DNA from: Brucella pseudogrignonensis
Lineage (GTDB): Bacteria > Pseudomonadota > Alphaproteobacteria > Rhizobiales > Rhizobiaceae
Direction of reading: 5' to 3'
Assembly (NCBI RefSeq): GCF_002252525.1
Contig: NZ_NNRM01000048.1
Location: forward strand, 124,001 to 188,000
Length of the DNA: 64,000 nucleotides
The position numbers and the translations under genes were made by a program. Position 1 is the stretch's first letter; every line of letters starts with the position of its first letter. The notes beneath the pieces are model-generated. The model searched no databases. It saw only the letters and a list, made by a program, of their open reading frames with translations, and was not told the DNA's origin. Shown piece by piece: positions 1 to 5,359 of this stretch.

Positions 1-498
1 GAGCTTGTCGACTTCAGCCTTGGCTTCGGTTTCCTTGCCAAAAATCTGGCCCAGCTTTTCGATATTGGCTTCGGTGCCGGAAATGAATTCCTTGGCTGGA
101 ACAGTCAGATCGATGGTCGGTGCAATCTTTGCGAGCTCACCATATTTTGCAGCCGAGCGACCGCCGACAATGATCAGGTCAGGTTCGGCTGCATTAACCG
201 CTTCATAGTCAGGTTCAAAAAGCGTGCCGACTTTCGTGTAATCTGCGCCGTCGTATTTCTTGAGATATTCCGGGAAAGCGATGCTGCCAGGAACGCCGAT
301 GATCTTCACGCCAAGGCGATCAAGATTGTCGAGCGTTGCGAAATCGAACACGACGACTTTTTCAGGATTGGTTGCAACCGTTGTTTCGCCTTGGGCGTGT
401 TTGACTGCCACATCAGCAGCGTTCGCGCCGGAGGCAAGGGCTGTGGCAACAAGTGCTGCGCCAAACAGACGGGAAAAATGTCGGCTGATTTTCAGCAT
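1..498 (-). CDS. Ferric-siderophore ABC transporter periplasmic binding protein (3' part missing)
   Basis: The first 166 residues are visible; the rest lies beyond the window edge. A signal peptide (MLKISRHF..., likely cut after SGANA) is followed by a segment starting DVAVKHAQGETTVATNPEKVVVFDF, shown here only as its key features: the NPEKVVVFD strand and the later PDLIIVGGRS segment are typical of the PF01497 (FepB/FatB/CeuE) family, which delivers ferric siderophores to an inner-membrane ABC permease. It is third in a minus-strand run after the TonB receptor and the esterase, 73 bp from the esterase, so the three probably serve the same siderophore. Permease and ATPase genes would be expected beyond the window. 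The start is the ATG at 498. Family is confident; the exact siderophore is not known from sequence. Confidence 0.88.
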   Translation of the reverse strand, partial: MLKISRHFSRLFGAALVATALASGANAADVAVKHAQGETTVATNPEKVVVFDFATLDNLDRLGVKIIGVPGSIAFPEYLKKYDGADYTKVGTLFEPDYEAVNAAEPDLIIVGGRSAAKYGELAKIAPTIDLTVPAKEFISGTEANIEKLGQIFGKETEAKAEVDKL

Positions 499-571
499 GG
501 CGTTCAATCCTTTCGTCAATCTTGTGCTTTATAGTCCGGTTTTCTTCCAGTCAAAGCCGGAAGACCACAAT

Positions 572-1480
572 TCAGTTGTTTTGTTGGTCTGGGCTCTCAT
601 TGAGCAGGATGAATTTCAAGCTGTCTTCGACCGTGAGCGGGATCATCGAACCGTGGCTTTCGTTATCGAAGCGACGATAGGCGACCTCAAAGCCCGGAAG
701 TTGTTTCAACTCGGTCTGAATGTCTGCACCCGAAGGTCCGCCGCGCAGCTTCTTCAGACGCTCAGTATCTTCCTTTGACTGACCTGGGCGTTCGCCGCGC
801 TTGCCGGATGATTCAACAAGCAGTCGCATCGGTTTCGGATCGGCTTTGAATGCCTCCACAAACCGATCCTTGTCGGTGAGAATCGAGCGTCCATTCCACC
901 AGATCGATGGGTCTGCGGCAGCATAAGTCTGAAATGAATCCGAATGATTGAAGAGCGCATAAAGCGTGAAAAGCCCACCCAGCGAATGCCCAAAAAGAGC
1001 CTGCTTGTTCTTGTCGATAGCAAAACGCTTTTCGACTTCCGCTTTTACCTGATGATCAATAAAATCGAAGAACGCGTCACGTCCGCCAGTTTTCGGAATA
1101 TTGGTCTGAACAGGGATCAATTCGTCTGGTGTCGAAGGCGTGAGATCGAAATAGCGCAGGCGGACGATTTCGTCCTTGTCTTCGGTCGGATAACCGATGC
1201 CGACAAACACTGCGTTGAGCTGAGGATTATCTTCCATCAGCTTGGCTGCGATTGGCAACATCCGATTGCCATCACTCATATAGACAACGGGAAAACCATT
1301 GGCAGGCGCTTTTTCAGCGGGTGCAGCCACGAAAATTCGATAGTCGATGCCGTTCGCCTGCATGTCAAAGGAGTCGACTTGCGGCTTTCCAGCATGTGCA
1401 GAGGCGTTCACGAGAATGCTTCCGAACATGAGGCAGACCTTCAAAATTACGTTCTTTGTCTTGCTCACGGGAGCATCCAT
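572..1480 (-). CDS. Alpha/beta-hydrolase, siderophore esterase (IroE/BesA type)
   Basis: A 302-residue secreted esterase of the PF00756 group. The N-terminus has a hydrophobic signal-like segment ending near SAHA (about residue 30). The nucleophile elbow GHSLGG lies at residues 164-169 (Ser166), followed by an ADPSIWW stretch typical of IroE/Fes-like esterases, and the C-terminal NESHGS supplies the catalytic His. Such enzymes hydrolyse triscatecholate trilactone siderophores or their ferric complexes to release iron. It lies between a TonB receptor and a siderophore-binding protein, which supports that role. The ATG at 1480 has no clear ribosome-binding site; a GTG four codons on is a possible alternative start. 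Substrate (enterobactin-like or other) is inferred. Confidence 0.82.
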   Translation of the reverse strand: MDAPVSKTKNVILKVCLMFGSILVNASAHAGKPQVDSFDMQANGIDYRIFVAAPAEKAPANGFPVVYMSDGNRMLPIAAKLMEDNPQLNAVFVGIGYPTEDKDEIVRLRYFDLTPSTPDELIPVQTNIPKTGGRDAFFDFIDHQVKAEVEKRFAIDKNKQALFGHSLGGLFTLYALFNHSDSFQTYAAADPSIWWNGRSILTDKDRFVEAFKADPKPMRLLVESSGKRGERPGQSKEDTERLKKLRGGPSGADIQTELKQLPGFEVAYRRFDNESHGSMIPLTVEDSLKFILLNESPDQQNN

Positions 1481-1490
1481 TTCATAAAGA

Positions 1491-1521
1491 AATGACGCCA
1501 GCCAAAATCAGCTGGCGTCAT
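1491..1521 (-). terminator. Hairpin between TonB receptor and esterase genes
   Basis: An 11-bp perfect stem (ATGACGCCAGC with GCTGGCGTCAT) encloses an 8-nt loop. Read on the minus strand it is followed by TTTCTTT, as in an intrinsic terminator. It lies inside the run of three siderophore genes, so it may attenuate the two distal genes. Confidence 0.6.
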
Positions 1522-1529
1522 AATGTGCG

Positions 1530-3767
1530 TTAGAAGCGTGAGGTCATGCCGAGCCAGAGACGACGGCCTTCAACCACATTGTTGATTTCGTCCACTGTGA
1601 CCTTCTTATCGAAGATGTTGTAGACGGCAGCATTGAGTGTGACGTTCTCACTGAATTCATAAGAGCCACCGAGGTCGAAAGTGGCATAGCCCTTATATTT
1701 GCGGGCGATAACCTGACCTCTGCTGTTATAGGCATATGGCTCACCAACAGTGCCGATACGCAGACCGGCGTTGATTTCAGGGCCGTGATAGTTACCAGCC
1801 GCCCATGCAGTCAGACCATCGACTGGTGTTTCCCAATCTGCGCGGATGTTTGCCATGTGCTTTGGCGTGCGAGCCAGAGGCAAACCTGCATATTCGCCGG
1901 TCTTCTGTTCAGAGTCGGTATAGGTATAGCTACCGCGCAGCTTAATCGTGTCGGTCGCTTCCCAATCTGCCGTCAGTTCTACACCCTGAATTGTCGCTTC
2001 ATCGATGTTGTAGCTGTAATAGAGGACGTAGTTCGGGTCCTGAGCCCAGCGCAGTGGCTGGCCTGTGATTGGATCATACTGAATGTTGCTGGCGATCTTG
2101 TCTTTGAAATCGGTGTAGAAGTATGTCGCACCGAGACGCAGACCCTGCTGGTTGTCCCAAAGCGCACTGGCTTCATAGCTGGTGCTCTTTTCTGGCTGAA
2201 GGTTTGGATCACCGATAATGACGCCGCAGTTTCCGGTCGGGCCGTAGGTACAGTTGCCGCCGCCAGTCGTGTAAGCATAACCGGGTGCAATAGTGCGAAT
2301 TTCAGGGGCGCGGAAGCCGGTTGAAATGCCGCCCTTGAGGGTCAGCTGATCCGTGGCGTGCCAAACGGCATAGCCACGCGGGCTCCAATGCGAACCGTAG
2401 ATTTCGTGGTGATCCATGCGCAGGCCACCGGTCAGCGCAAAGTCTGGAGTGATCCACCATTCATCTTCAGCGAAAAGTGCCCACTGCTTGATCGTGAACT
2501 CTTCGTCCAAGCCTGTACGACGGCCCGGGTTCTGATCTGTCAGCGTGCCTTCGATAAACTGGCCGCCGGTTACAAGTGTGTGGTTGCCATAAAGCTCGAA
2601 CGGAGTGGTGAACTTGCCGTCCAGTGTAGAGTTACGGATATGCGGTGAACGCAGGCTTTCAACAAAATCACCGCGAGTCTTGTTCCAAGTGTAGTTTGTT
2701 CTCTGAGCAGTTTCCTGCATGAAAGAGAACTCGGAAGTTGTTGGACCCCAACGGCCTGTGTGACTGATCGACCAGTGGTTTCGGTCGTTCATATTATAAG
2801 TGTCGAGCGGTGCCGTGCTGCCGGTTGCTACAGGGTTGATCGTGTTTCCAACCGATGAATCGCGGCGCAAGCGCGTCTTGCCAGCTTCAAAAACGATGTC
2901 GTGATCGGCGTTTGGCGTAATCGTCACGCGACCGGTGATGTCGATATCACGCTGCTCTGGCGTGCCGCTGATGATTTTGTCTTCCTGACGCTTGAGGCCG
3001 CGTCCCCACAGCTGCACACCAACCAAATTCGGAACGAGAGGGCCGGTCATGTAGTATGAGCCCTGTAGCGAATTACCGAACTTCGAGTGCTGCTGAACCG
3101 TCGTGTCGAAGCTCAGCGAGCCGCTCCACTTGTCCGAAACCTTCTTGGTGATGACGTTGATCACGCCGCCCATGGCGTCGGAACCATAAAGCGATGACAT
3201 CGGGCCACGAATAACTTCGATGCGTTCGATAGCGTTGGCTGGCGGCAAGAAGCTCTGTTCAAAACCGGAGTTGCCGTTGGTGCGCGCGTCGCGTGTGCTC
3301 TGACGCTTTCCGTCAACGAGGATCAGCGTGTAGCTGCCCGGAAGGCCGCGAATGAAGATGTCACGTTCTGCTGCAGCCCCCGTCACAGCAACGCCCTGAA
3401 CATCGCGCAATGCATCGCCTAGATCGCGATAAGAGCCTTTTTCAAGTTCTTCACCCGGTACAACCGAAATGCTCGCTGGAGCATCGGTTATGTTCTGCTC
3501 AAAACCTGTCGCCGAAACAACGATCTGGTTAAGCGTGATACCACCGGCAGCGTTTACCTGTTCGGTCGCCTGGGCTTCAGCCTGTTTCTTTTTCGCGGCT
3601 TCTTCTTCTGCTGTGGTTGCGGTCTGTGCGAAAGAAGCTGCGCCGCTTAGAATAAGTGCGGTCGAAAGGCATGTGCCCGCAAGAATGGCTTTTGCAAAAA
3701 GCGATCCGCTGGCCAATTGCCTGTTCTGCGAACCATTGGTACGCAATCCCCGAAACAAGCTGGTCAT
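1530..3767 (-). CDS. TonB-dependent siderophore receptor (FepA/CirA-like)
   Basis: A 745-residue outer-membrane receptor. A long signal peptide ends near SGAASFAQ (about residue 47). The TonB-box region contains ITLNQIVVSA, and the plug domain shows the RDIFIRGLPG, IERIEVIRGP and GSDAMGGVINVIT motifs. The remainder is a 22-strand-type beta-barrel ending in Phe (GMTSRF), the usual outer-membrane assembly signal. It imports ferric siderophore using TonB/ExbBD energy. I chose the ATG at 3767 because AAGGGTG lies 6-7 nt upstream; a further upstream in-frame start has no such site. It is first in the minus-strand iron run and divergent from the HTH/TrpD2 gene. The length is close to FepA (about 750). 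The exact ligand is unknown; a catecholate is likely given the adjacent IroE-like esterase. Confidence 0.9.
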   Translation of the reverse strand: MTSLFRGLRTNGSQNRQLASGSLFAKAILAGTCLSTALILSGAASFAQTATTAEEEAAKKKQAEAQATEQVNAAGGITLNQIVVSATGFEQNITDAPASISVVPGEELEKGSYRDLGDALRDVQGVAVTGAAAERDIFIRGLPGSYTLILVDGKRQSTRDARTNGNSGFEQSFLPPANAIERIEVIRGPMSSLYGSDAMGGVINVITKKVSDKWSGSLSFDTTVQQHSKFGNSLQGSYYMTGPLVPNLVGVQLWGRGLKRQEDKIISGTPEQRDIDITGRVTITPNADHDIVFEAGKTRLRRDSSVGNTINPVATGSTAPLDTYNMNDRNHWSISHTGRWGPTTSEFSFMQETAQRTNYTWNKTRGDFVESLRSPHIRNSTLDGKFTTPFELYGNHTLVTGGQFIEGTLTDQNPGRRTGLDEEFTIKQWALFAEDEWWITPDFALTGGLRMDHHEIYGSHWSPRGYAVWHATDQLTLKGGISTGFRAPEIRTIAPGYAYTTGGGNCTYGPTGNCGVIIGDPNLQPEKSTSYEASALWDNQQGLRLGATYFYTDFKDKIASNIQYDPITGQPLRWAQDPNYVLYYSYNIDEATIQGVELTADWEATDTIKLRGSYTYTDSEQKTGEYAGLPLARTPKHMANIRADWETPVDGLTAWAAGNYHGPEINAGLRIGTVGEPYAYNSRGQVIARKYKGYATFDLGGSYEFSENVTLNAAVYNIFDKKVTVDEINNVVEGRRLWLGMTSRF

Positions 3768-3820: not shown

Positions 3821-3835
3821 TGACGTCAATCGTCA
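3821..3835. promoter_or_regulatory. TGA-N9-TCA motif, candidate RirA iron-responsive box
   Basis: TGACGTCAATCGTCA fits the TGA-N9-TCA iron-responsive pattern described for RirA in rhizobia. It lies in the 122-bp divergent gap, 54 bp upstream of the receptor start. The pattern is short, so a chance match is possible. Confidence 0.35.
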
Positions 3836-3889
3836 TGATTTATAAGAATTCCAAGTTTCAGAAAACGCAACTGAACGGATGTCGTAGCA

Positions 3890-5359
3890 ATGTCGGGCAA
3901 GCGAATGAAAACTCAGGCAGAGGTTGATAAAGTGGAGGGCGAAAGCCTGAAACTGGGGCAGCTGCGCTTGCTGATTGCGCTTGATGCACTTCTTGTGGAA
4001 GGCAGTGTCGGCGGTGCTGCAAAGCAGATGGGATTGAGCATTGCGGCCATGAGCCGGCTACTCGGACAGATCCGCGAGAAGTTCGATGATCCGATCCTCG
4101 TGCGTTCGGGTCGAAACATGATTGCAACGCCAAAAGCCGAAGCTTTACGTGGTCGCTTGCGCAGACTGGCCAATGAAGCTGAAGCGCTCATGAGCTTCAA
4201 CGGCAGTGATGCAGTGGAGACGCATTGCAAAAGAAAGCATGGGTGGGAGAGGGCGAGCGCTATTGTTGCGCCGCCGCCGTTGGGTATTCGTAAGGTAATC
4301 GAGCTCGAAAACCATCCCACCCCTGAACAGCTTGCGGCCCAATTTGCCAATATTCAGGATGAGAACGATCCTGTTCGGCGGCTCGCGAAATACATTGCAA
4401 TCACCGGCCGTAAGGTTGGTCACACACGTCCGCTCGAAATGTACGAAGCGGAAGATGCTTTCACCACGATATTTGCAGGTGAAGCAGACCCCATGCAAAT
4501 CAGCGCTTTATTGCGGCTTATTCATTATCGAGGTGAAACGGCTCCTGAACTTGCCGGTATGGCTCAGGCAGCCCGAAAATATTACTCAACGCAGGCCGAC
4601 ATTCGCCGCCCGGCACTCGACTGGCCTGCATATCTCTCGCCAAACTCACATCAGTCGCCATGGTTTATGCTGGCAGCAATTCTTGTTGCACGCGCTGGCT
4701 ATCCGGTCGTGATGCATGGCAATTGCGGAACAGGTGAGCTTTCCGGGAAGCTGGAACTCGCAGCTGAAGCTGTCAATATCCCGGTTGCGGGTTCGCTATC
4801 ATTGGCTGAAAGTGCGCTGAATGCGCATGGTATCTGCTTCATGCCATTGGCTGGTTTTGCACCACAGGTTCACGCCCTGCTCGCGCTTTATCCATTGTTT
4901 CACTCGAGGTCATCGATCAACAGTCTCGCGCATCTGCTTAACCCGATGCAGTTGTCCACATCGGTCCTCGGTGTCACTCAACCAACCTATCGTGAGTTGC
5001 ATCGCGATGCGGCGGCGCTGCTAGATTTAAAGTCGGTTTCGGTCGTGTCGACGAGCCGCGATGTGGCGGAGCTGGTGCCGCACCATGCGCATACGGTTTA
5101 CAGATGGCTCGGCGAACAGAAAACGGACCTCACATTGCCAACCTTGTCGAAGGCAGGAACCGATAAGCATTCCAGCCTCACTTCGTTTGAATACTGGCTC
5201 GCCGTTTGGTCGGGTGCCGCCGTTGATGAGCGTGCAGAGCTGACGATTATCGCATCTACCGCGATGGCGCTCATGACTGTTCTTGCTGCAGACAATGATA
5301 GTTACGGCCAGTTCTACAAAAAGGCAGAGGAACTTTGGAAAACGCGCCATCAACACTGA
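3890..5359 (+). CDS. LysR-type HTH fused to a TrpD2/YbiB-like phosphoribosyltransferase-fold domain
   Basis: The protein has 489 residues. Residues about 20-85 form a LysR-type winged helix-turn-helix (LLIALDALLVEGSVGGAAKQ, then the FDDPILVRSGR wing). From about residue 125 to the end it resembles TrpD2 proteins such as E. coli YbiB, with an N-terminal helical part (LRLIHYRGETAPELAGM) and a nucleotide-binding loop MHGNCGTGE at 275-283. YbiB-type proteins have the anthranilate phosphoribosyltransferase fold but are reported to bind nucleic acid rather than act in tryptophan synthesis. No LysR effector domain is present; the TrpD2 part replaces it. The gene is divergent from the siderophore receptor. 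The ATG at 3890 is used, with 3905 as an alternative. A DNA-binding regulator is inferred; catalysis is unproven. Confidence 0.8.
   Translation: MSGKRMKTQAEVDKVEGESLKLGQLRLLIALDALLVEGSVGGAAKQMGLSIAAMSRLLGQIREKFDDPILVRSGRNMIATPKAEALRGRLRRLANEAEALMSFNGSDAVETHCKRKHGWERASAIVAPPPLGIRKVIELENHPTPEQLAAQFANIQDENDPVRRLAKYIAITGRKVGHTRPLEMYEAEDAFTTIFAGEADPMQISALLRLIHYRGETAPELAGMAQAARKYYSTQADIRRPALDWPAYLSPNSHQSPWFMLAAILVARAGYPVVMHGNCGTGELSGKLELAAEAVNIPVAGSLSLAESALNAHGICFMPLAGFAPQVHALLALYPLFHSRSSINSLAHLLNPMQLSTSVLGVTQPTYRELHRDAAALLDLKSVSVVSTSRDVAELVPHHAHTVYRWLGEQKTDLTLPTLSKAGTDKHSSLTSFEYWLAVWSGAAVDERAELTIIASTAMALMTVLAADNDSYGQFYKKAEELWKTRHQH

What the first reader, a model, noticed from the sequence alone, without database searches (positions are those of the whole stretch)
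3890..5359. LysR DNA-binding domain fused to a TrpD2/YbiB-like domain, divergent from a siderophore receptor
The N-terminal ~65 residues are a LysR winged helix, but the effector domain is replaced by a TrpD2-type domain (nucleotide-binding loop MHGNCGTGE at 275-283). YbiB-type proteins are known from E. coli as nucleic-acid binders with a phosphoribosyltransferase fold. A regulator that may sense a phosphoribosyl compound or nucleic acid would be new. Its place next to a TonB receptor suggests control of iron uptake.
Basis: partly seen in the sequence, partly recalled or inferred. Interest (0 to 1): 0.72.

Follow-up and report, generated by a model that had tools for sequence, protein, structure and literature searches.

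The report
LysR regulator with borrowed enzyme-fold sensor
A bacterial gene switch of a very common type carries, in place of its usual sensor, a domain related to a tryptophan-making enzyme, and it sits beside iron-scavenging (catechol siderophore) uptake genes in many soil and water bacteria, probably to switch them on when their siderophore is present.

Summary
The ORF at 3890-5359 is one intact 489-aa gene with a LysR HTH (residues 25-84) and a TrpD2-like domain (154-488). No LysR sensor domain is found. Its nearest family is PRK09071, not YbiB.

In the tree the 30 fusions are one clade. 41 of 394 genomes of the window's family match, 38 including the HTH region; plasmids add Azospirillum, Pannonibacter, Cereibacter and Sulfitobacter. 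The iron link is strong: 24 of 24 fusion loci first examined and 21 of 22 held-out loci adjoin catecholate-siderophore uptake genes, against 0 of 61 stand-alone loci.

The receptor promoter carries a palindrome, TTGCG-N5-CGCAA, abutting an Irr-like box upstream of the -35 and, downstream, a RirA-like box. They recur at near-fixed spacing in 21 of 22 held-out loci. Two receptor promoters without the fusion keep the Irr-like box but lack the palindrome, which is therefore the likely operator of the fusion.

PRPP sensing is not supported; nucleic-acid sensing is unlikely, not excluded. I infer a remodelled pocket for a catechol. No binding or ligand was tested.

The parts
3890..5359 (+). LysR-TrpD2 fusion regulator, 489 aa
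   Evidence: Single ORF; Pfam and NCBIfam domains; 33 of 35 genomes of the genus have a match
3962..4141 (+). LysR winged-helix DNA-binding domain (residues 25-84)
   Evidence: PF00126 40.9 bits, over the cut-off; found independently
4349..5353 (+). TrpD2-like (PRK09071) domain, residues 154-488; proposed sensor
   Evidence: NF006564 431 bits, over the cut-off; TrpD/YbiB fold by sequence
1530..3767 (-). TonB-dependent catecholate receptor, CirA-like, divergent from the fusion
   Evidence: Pfam barrel and plug; closest solved chains colicin I receptor, then ferric enterobactin receptors; start codon chosen by eye, checked
572..1480 (-). siderophore esterase, closest to BES, IroE-like and ferric enterobactin esterases
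1..498 (-). siderophore-binding protein of the CeuE/YclQ type, cut by the window edge; permease and ATPase genes follow on the contig outside the window
3856..3870 (-). M3: TTGCGTTTTCTGAAA (T-N11-A, consensus TTGCG-N5-CGCAA), proposed operator of the fusion
   Evidence: motif search, leave-one-out, held-out loci
3837..3857 (-). M1: Irr/ICE-like palindrome, centre about -54 of the predicted receptor promoter
   Evidence: kept in two receptor promoters without the fusion
3824..3829 (-). predicted -35 element TTGACG of the receptor promoter
   Evidence: TTGAC, TTGCC or TTGCG at the same place in 21 of 22 held-out loci
3821..3835 (.). exact TGA-N9-TCA (RirA IRO consensus) overlapping the -35; present in 13 of 14 loci of the genus
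   Evidence: consensus from PMC6386902
3781..3799 (-). M2: imperfect TGA-N9-TC palindrome over the predicted transcription start, RirA IRO-like

Best explanation
It is a dedicated one-component regulator of a catecholate-siderophore uptake operon. The LysR head and its linker helix make it dimerise and bind the palindrome TTGCG-N5-CGCAA, about 70 bp upstream of the predicted start of the receptor operon and directly beside an Irr-like box. Iron status is read by Irr and RirA on the neighbouring boxes. The fusion adds a second, substrate-specific input, most likely activating the receptor operon when its siderophore is at hand. The TrpD2-like domain replaces the LysR sensor. I infer that its old active-site cleft, which in TrpD holds anthranilate (2-aminobenzoate), now holds a related aromatic such as 2,3-dihydroxybenzoate or a linear catecholate freed by the operon's own esterase. 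Shown by sequence: fusion, single clade, gene neighbourhood, recurring promoter boxes. Inferred: who binds which box, the sign of regulation, and the ligand.
For: Domains. Single fusion clade, 30 rows, support 100/100. Catecholate uptake genes at 24 of 24 fusion loci first examined and at 21 of 22 held-out loci, against 0 of 61 stand-alone loci (mostly 1.5 kb flanks). In 151 genomes 12 of 12 fusion carriers have the receptor against 6 of 139 others. M3 recovered by motif search (log-likelihood 89.3 against at most 28.5 in ten shuffles), abutting M1 in 16 of 17 promoters, and with frozen matrices in 21 of 22 held-out loci. Two receptor promoters without a fusion keep M1 but not M3. Ordinary LysR proteins with a 58%-identical HTH have TTGCA-N5-TGCAA in their own divergent promoter. 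Cleft positions are fixed in 18 of 18 diverse fusions but changed from the stand-alones: S250-P251 for AG, R390-D391 for mostly GG; the equivalent of TrpD's anthranilate-carboxylate Arg (R340) is kept in 17 of 18 (role of that Arg from PMC9835598 passages). Receptor, esterase and binding protein each resemble catecholate systems.
Against: No binding, expression or ligand data exist. R340 is also kept in 63 of 63 stand-alones and in YbiB, so it does not point to aromatics by itself. M1 and M3 abut, so M3 could be part of a composite site of another protein. M3 fails leave-one-out at L094 and L104 (p 0.30 and 0.16) and G072 without the fusion scores p 0.075; it is weak, though above most shuffles, at L213, L216, L217 and L218. 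The bare T-N11-A rule is also met in the two promoters without a fusion, so only the half-sites discriminate. In the window the exact RirA consensus lies over the -35, not at M2. The structure prediction failed (mean pLDDT 38.5), so the cleft argument rests on alignment alone.
Confidence: 0.62

Rival explanations
1. The TrpD2 domain is only a dimerisation or scaffold module. The protein is a constitutive activator or repressor at M3, and all signal input comes from Irr and RirA at the neighbouring boxes.
For: YbiB is a homodimer and dimerisation stabilises TrpD (PMC10123104 and PMC9835598 passages). Irr-like and RirA-like boxes flank the core promoter.
Against: A scaffold would not need a fixed, re-specified cleft; S250, P251, H276, G277, R390 and D391 are invariant in 18 of 18 diverse fusions.
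Confidence: 0.2
2. The TrpD2 domain binds nucleic acid as YbiB does, adding a second DNA contact or an RNA-responsive input.
For: Best profile matches among solved structures are YbiB. Net charge of the fusion domains (mean +0.3) is higher than YbiB's (-3).
Against: The equivalents of YbiB Arg92 and Arg123 are kept in most stand-alones (R or K in 51 of 63, R in 53 of 63) but R is found in only 1 and 0 of 18 diverse fusions.
Confidence: 0.1
3. The domain senses PRPP or a phosphoribosyl compound.
For: Common fold with anthranilate phosphoribosyltransferase.
Against: The GTGGD loop, the Lys of KHGN and the Asp-Glu pair are all replaced.
Confidence: 0.04
4. M3 is part of a composite Irr site and the fusion binds elsewhere or does not act on this promoter.
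For: M3 abuts M1 without a gap in 16 of 17 promoters and in 21 of 22 held-out loci.
Against: G040 and G072, without the fusion, keep M1 and lose M3. LysR cousins have a like half-site in their own promoter. M3 fits the LysR T-N11-A rule (PMC5002191 passage; 16 of 17).
Confidence: 0.1

Closest known systems
LysR-type transcriptional regulators (PF00126 + PF03466)
   Same: LysR HTH over the Pfam cut-off, linker-helix sequence kept (by eye), divergent target gene, T-N11-A palindrome upstream of the target promoter
   Different: The LysR_substrate sensor domain is not found; a TrpD2-like domain takes its place
PRK09071 / NF006564 'glycosyl transferase family protein' (stand-alone TrpD2-like)
   Same: 18 of 18 diverse fusion domains match the model
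   Different: No HTH match in the stand-alones; of 61 loci none is next to siderophore genes in the flanks held, and some of the nearest relatives lie in or near nitrate-assimilation operons; cleft residues differ
YbiB, the defining TrpD2 protein of E. coli
   Same: Fold by sequence, PRPP loop missing
   Different: Below the YbiB cut-off; YbiB's arginines not kept; YbiB follows dinG and aligns without an HTH
IrgB of Vibrio (LysR activator divergent from the catecholate receptor IrgA; recalled, not tested)
   Same: Same arrangement as recalled: LysR gene divergent from a CirA/IrgA-like receptor
   Different: IrgB is, as recalled, an ordinary LysR protein; a search for papers naming irgB, LysR and enterobactin found none in the library

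Membership tests
LysR-type regulator | N-terminal LysR HTH | tested here: met
   40.9 bits against 26.6; 6 of 6 named plasmid fusions scanned are over the cut-off
LysR-type regulator | C-terminal LysR_substrate (periplasmic-binding-protein-like) domain | tested here: not met
   No PF03466 match at E <= 0.001 in the window protein or in 6 of 6 named fusions; the cousin L116 has it
LysR-type regulator | binds a T-N11-A palindrome near its divergent target | tested here: inconclusive
   Such a palindrome recurs; binding not tested
TrpD2 / YbiB | Anthranilate-phosphoribosyltransferase fold without the PRPP loop | tested here: met
   fold by sequence only, the structure model failed
TrpD2 / YbiB | arginines Arg92 and Arg123 kept (reported conserved in TrpD2, PMC10123104 passages) | tested here: not met
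   R in 1 and 0 of 18 diverse fusions
TrpD2 / YbiB | sequence-independent nucleic-acid binding | not testable with these tools
   needs a binding assay
PRK09071 (NF006564) | score over the curated cut-off of 257 bits | tested here: met
   431 bits for the window protein; 18 of 18 diverse domains match the model at E <= 0.001 (single scores shown only for the first)
anthranilate phosphoribosyltransferase | GTGGD PRPP loop and Asp-Glu metal pair | tested here: not met
   S250-P251 and R390-D391 in 18 of 18 diverse fusions
catecholate-siderophore uptake operon regulator | conserved neighbourhood with receptor, esterase or binding protein | tested here: met
   24 of 24 loci first examined and 21 of 22 held-out loci
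catecholate-siderophore uptake operon regulator | changes expression of that operon | not testable with these tools
   needs expression data

The most novel reading that the evidence does not exclude
A LysR regulator has exchanged its standard sensor for a retired anthranilate-phosphoribosyltransferase fold whose cleft was re-tuned to a catechol ligand, probably the aromatic released from the siderophore by the esterase of the same operon. This would be a second kind of LysR sensor and a substrate-specific switch laid over Irr/RirA iron control in Alphaproteobacteria.
Probability: 0.4. Interest if true: 0.78.

Novelty: new variant of a known kind. Interest (0 to 1): 0.62.

Why it matters
LysR proteins are among the commonest bacterial regulators and nearly all sense with one fold (recalled). 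A widespread subfamily with a different sensor, filed in plasmid records mostly as a 'glycosyl transferase', would show that the LysR head can be re-wired to an enzyme-derived sensor. It also gives the poorly understood PRK09071/TrpD2 proteins a testable job as small-molecule binders. The finding makes concrete, cheap predictions: an operator sequence, a target promoter and a short list of ligands.

Tried and rejected
Structure prediction of the whole protein with four close relatives failed (mean pLDDT 38.5). The stated rule allowed only loci from some tools as alignment rows, so the deep set of fusions could not be used; no fold search was run.

RirA site: the only exact TGA-N9-TCA of the window gap is at 3821-3835, over the -35, kept in 13 of 14 loci of the genus. 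Across genera the recurring box is M2, which is an exact TGA-N9-TCA only in L093 and L108 and TGA-N9-TCT in the window. Either or both may be RirA sites.

M1 was first taken as a possible LysR box because it also fits T-N11-A. It was re-assigned to Irr because it persists in G040 and G072 without the fusion. The ICE letters are recalled. Exact ICE cores in the window's own genome (3 places) lie beside genes that read by eye as an MbfA-like protein, a bacterioferritin/heme-uptake locus and an FTR1-like permease; no family search was run on them. With up to one mismatch the pattern is no commoner than its reversed control (10 against 16).

M3 was noticed by eye in the output and then recovered by motif search. 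Shuffles keep base composition only, not dinucleotides. In five promoters the stretch searched for M3 was only 28 to 45 bases, so 'abutting M1' is less telling there.

Dropped rows: L092 (Azospirillum) gave no site between the fusion and its ABC gene and was left out of the M1 and M3 sets; by eye its receptor promoter further downstream has an M1-like box. L190 (G078) could not be scored because the match starts inside a broken receptor gene. L204 is the one held-out miss: the HTH end is gone and foreign sequence lies upstream. L054 and L061 are fusions and were removed from the stand-alone control (63 loci listed, 61 counted); a generic ATPase probe hit at L112 was not counted as siderophore-linked. 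The stand-alone of A. baumannii (L097, not among the 61) has a gene matching the esterase probes about 3 kb away.

Coverage: annotated regions were read for 6 of the 42 plasmid records that cover most of the query, many of the 42 being near-identical Agrobacterium plasmids. Held-out loci are the 22 of 41 genomes that were new and fetched. The class-wide search found only the own genome (1 of 385) but scored at most 4 candidates per genome in the rows shown, and plasmid records show fusions in other orders, so it is a lower bound. Counts over genomes are not corrected for kinship. The bootstrap of the tree had not settled and several branches are long.

Literature: no description of this fusion was seen in the listings. 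Passages only were read of PMC6748827, PMC9835598, PMC10123104, PMC7762939, PMC6386902, PMC6308992 and PMC5002191.

Rivals are not all exclusive.

Full report
WHAT IS THERE. The window comes from a Brucella/Ochrobactrum-type genome (nearest named relatives). The ORF at 3890-5359 is intact and encodes 489 aa. Pfam finds a LysR HTH at residues 25-84 and the two halves of the TrpD fold within 174-417, each over its cut-off, and no LysR_substrate domain. NCBIfam puts residues 154-488 in PRK09071 with 431 bits (cut-off 257). The YbiB and TrpD models match far below theirs (72 of 185 and 77 of 199 bits). Solved relatives of that part are TrpD enzymes and YbiB.

HOW WIDESPREAD. In a sample of 151 genomes of the window's family (Rhizobiaceae in GTDB terms, recalled), 18 matched at 1e-20. 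By domain order 12 are fusions (one of them, G078, in two frames), 4 have the TrpD2 part alone and 2 the HTH alone. A larger sample gave 41 of 394 at 1e-60, in 21 of 109 genera; 38 of the 41 matches begin at or before residue 21 and so span the HTH. In the genus 33 of 35 genomes have a match. Plasmid records add Azospirillum, Pannonibacter, Cereibacter and Sulfitobacter; 42 of 86 matching records cover at least 80% of the query, many of them near-identical Agrobacterium plasmids. Six of six named fusions scanned have HTH_1 and Glycos_trans_3N over the cut-offs, while Glycos_transf_3 is under its cut-off or not reported in all six. The records mostly call the gene 'glycosyl transferase family protein', in Sulfitobacter dubius 'LysR family transcriptional regulator'. 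On a tree of 95 TrpD2-like rows the 30 fusions are one side of a branch (support 100/100) on a long stem of 1.72 changes per column; the nearest rows, weakly supported (86/53), are four stand-alones that lie in or near nitrate-assimilation genes. A single fusion event is the simplest reading.

IRON LINK. The window operon opposite the fusion encodes a receptor closest to the colicin I receptor (CirA) and then ferric enterobactin receptors, an esterase closest to BES, IroE-like and ferric enterobactin esterases and a binding protein closest to siderophore-binding proteins, among them YclQ and enterochelin-uptake proteins, followed by permease and ATPase genes outside the window. The 24 fusion loci first examined are the window, 4 named relatives, 6 plasmid loci and 13 from the genome searches; 24 of 24 have such a receptor or transporter next to the fusion or within a few kilobases. 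In Agrobacterium pAt a multicopper oxidase takes the divergent place, followed by the transporter. Of 22 further loci fetched later, 21 have the receptor immediately divergent; the exception is L204. Of 61 stand-alone loci none has the receptor, binding-protein, permease or esterase probes in the flanks held, most of 1.5 kb; a further stand-alone, of A. baumannii, has an esterase-like gene about 3 kb away. Across 151 genomes, 12 of 12 fusion carriers have the receptor (at 1e-100 to the Shinella one; G070's is only 36% identical and G078's is broken) against 6 of 139 others (hypergeometric 1e-13, not corrected for kinship).

PROMOTER. Eighteen divergent promoters were searched. A palindrome TTTaGAAt.aTTCtAAA appeared (15-column model 77.4 against at most 28.9 in six shuffles): M1, which resembles the Irr (ICE) box as I recall it. 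A second box, M2, lies 54-57 bp from it in 15 of 18 and reads TGA-N9-TC, close to the RirA IRO box TGA-N9-TCA (consensus in PMC6386902, passages). In the window the exact IRO match lies elsewhere, over the -35 at 3821-3835, so the RirA assignment of M2 is tentative. Written in the receptor's direction, M1 is followed after about 7 bp by TTGACC or the like, a -10-like stretch such as ACATAAG, and then M2 over the predicted start. In that listing I noticed a third element against M1. A motif search of the stretch beyond M1 alone then gave TTGCG-N5-CGCAA, M3 (89.3 against at most 28.5 in ten shuffles; abutting M1 in 16 of 17). Sixteen of 17 also meet the LysR T-N11-A rule (rule in PMC5002191, passages). 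Its centre lies near -70 if the -35 is right.

IS M3 THE OPERATOR OF THE FUSION? Three tests favour it. First, with matrices frozen on the first promoters, 21 of 22 held-out fusion loci show M1 above all of 60 shuffles, M3 at the abutting place (reached by at most 3% of shuffles) and M2 best at +56 to +58; L204, without an HTH, shows none. Of the 21, four are of the window's genus, five share a genus with another training locus and 12 come from 8 genera not among the genome-drawn training loci (handles). M3 is weak at L213, L216, L217 and L218. Second, of six receptor genes in genomes without a fusion, G040 and G072 keep M1 and the -35 but not M3 (p 0.757 and 0.075 for the 13 columns outside M1), and the other four score no better than shuffles for the M1-M2 pair and were not scored for M3. 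Both G040 and G072 still meet the bare T-N11-A rule, so the half-sites, not the rule, discriminate. Third, ordinary LysR proteins whose HTH is 58% identical (L116, L117; L116 scanned: HTH plus LysR_substrate) have TTGCA-N5-TGCAA in their own divergent promoter, the best match of 11 kb in L116 and the third of 14 kb in L117; these two loci look orthologous, so count once. Against: leave-one-out fails at L094 and L104, and because M1 and M3 abut, a composite site of another protein is not excluded.

WHAT THE TrpD2-LIKE DOMAIN DOES. In TrpD, the GTGGD and KHGN loops and an Asp-Glu pair bind PRPP and metal, and a conserved Arg (R193 of the M. tuberculosis enzyme) holds anthranilate's carboxylate (PMC9835598 passages; the motif name KHGN is recalled). 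In 18 diverse fusions the GTGGD stretch is LDWPAYxSP with S250 and P251 invariant, the Lys of KHGN is L, I, M or V, the Asp-Glu stretch is R390-D391, invariant, and the Arg equivalent R340 is kept in 17 of 18. The stand-alones have A250, G251 and G391 in 63 of 63 and G390 in 55 of 63. So the cleft is still under constraint but with new chemistry. YbiB's Arg92 and Arg123, reported conserved in TrpD2 proteins (PMC10123104 passages), are R in 1 and 0 of 18 fusions though mostly kept in the stand-alones. A phosphoribosyltransferase is excluded as far as motifs go; a YbiB-like role is unlikely, though net charge does not speak against it. A new small ligand is the natural reading. Since TrpD binds an aromatic acid and the operon handles catechols, a catechol such as 2,3-dihydroxybenzoate is my first guess (inference). 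R340 is no specific support, being kept throughout.

MECHANISM PROPOSED. Irr and RirA report iron; the fusion, bound at M3 near -70, reports the substrate and activates the receptor operon, as an ordinary LysR protein would. Shown by sequence: domains, clade, neighbourhood, boxes. Inferred: binding partners, sign, ligand. The IrgB-IrgA pair of Vibrio is a recalled parallel for the arrangement only.

NOVELTY. By its head it is a LysR protein; by the defining sensor domain it is not a canonical one. I rate it a new variant of a known kind. No description of this fusion was seen in the listings; subscription papers and preprints were not covered.

Noticed in passing
L129 2249-8532 (E. coli K-12): ybiB itself lies about 3 kb from fiu, a catecholate siderophore receptor gene; it may be chance, since ybiB follows dinG.
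   Followed up: no
L108 (G078) 192-3618: The fusion is in two frames and the adjacent receptor match has seven stops: regulator and receptor seem to have decayed together.
   Followed up: partly
L204 (G1322): A fusion gene whose HTH end is replaced by foreign sequence that by eye reads like part of an integrase; 74% identical to the window protein over residues 106-488.
   Followed up: partly
L162 12240-12470 (G072): A 1.9 Mb genome keeps the receptor, transporter and Irr-like box although no fusion gene was found in it, as if the regulator had been lost.
   Followed up: partly
L096 6413-11430; also L053, L112, L113: A stand-alone PRK09071 gene sits between nitrate reductase and siroheme synthase (cysG) genes; three others have such genes nearby. 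This could explain their unknown role.
   Followed up: partly
L091 7287-8735 (Agrobacterium pAt): A multicopper oxidase takes the receptor's divergent place in front of the siderophore transporter.
   Followed up: no
L116 8307-9320 and L117 9033-10025: Ordinary LysR proteins with a similar HTH, divergent from a gene that by eye reads as an MFS transporter, with TTGCA-N5-TGCAA in between.
   Followed up: partly
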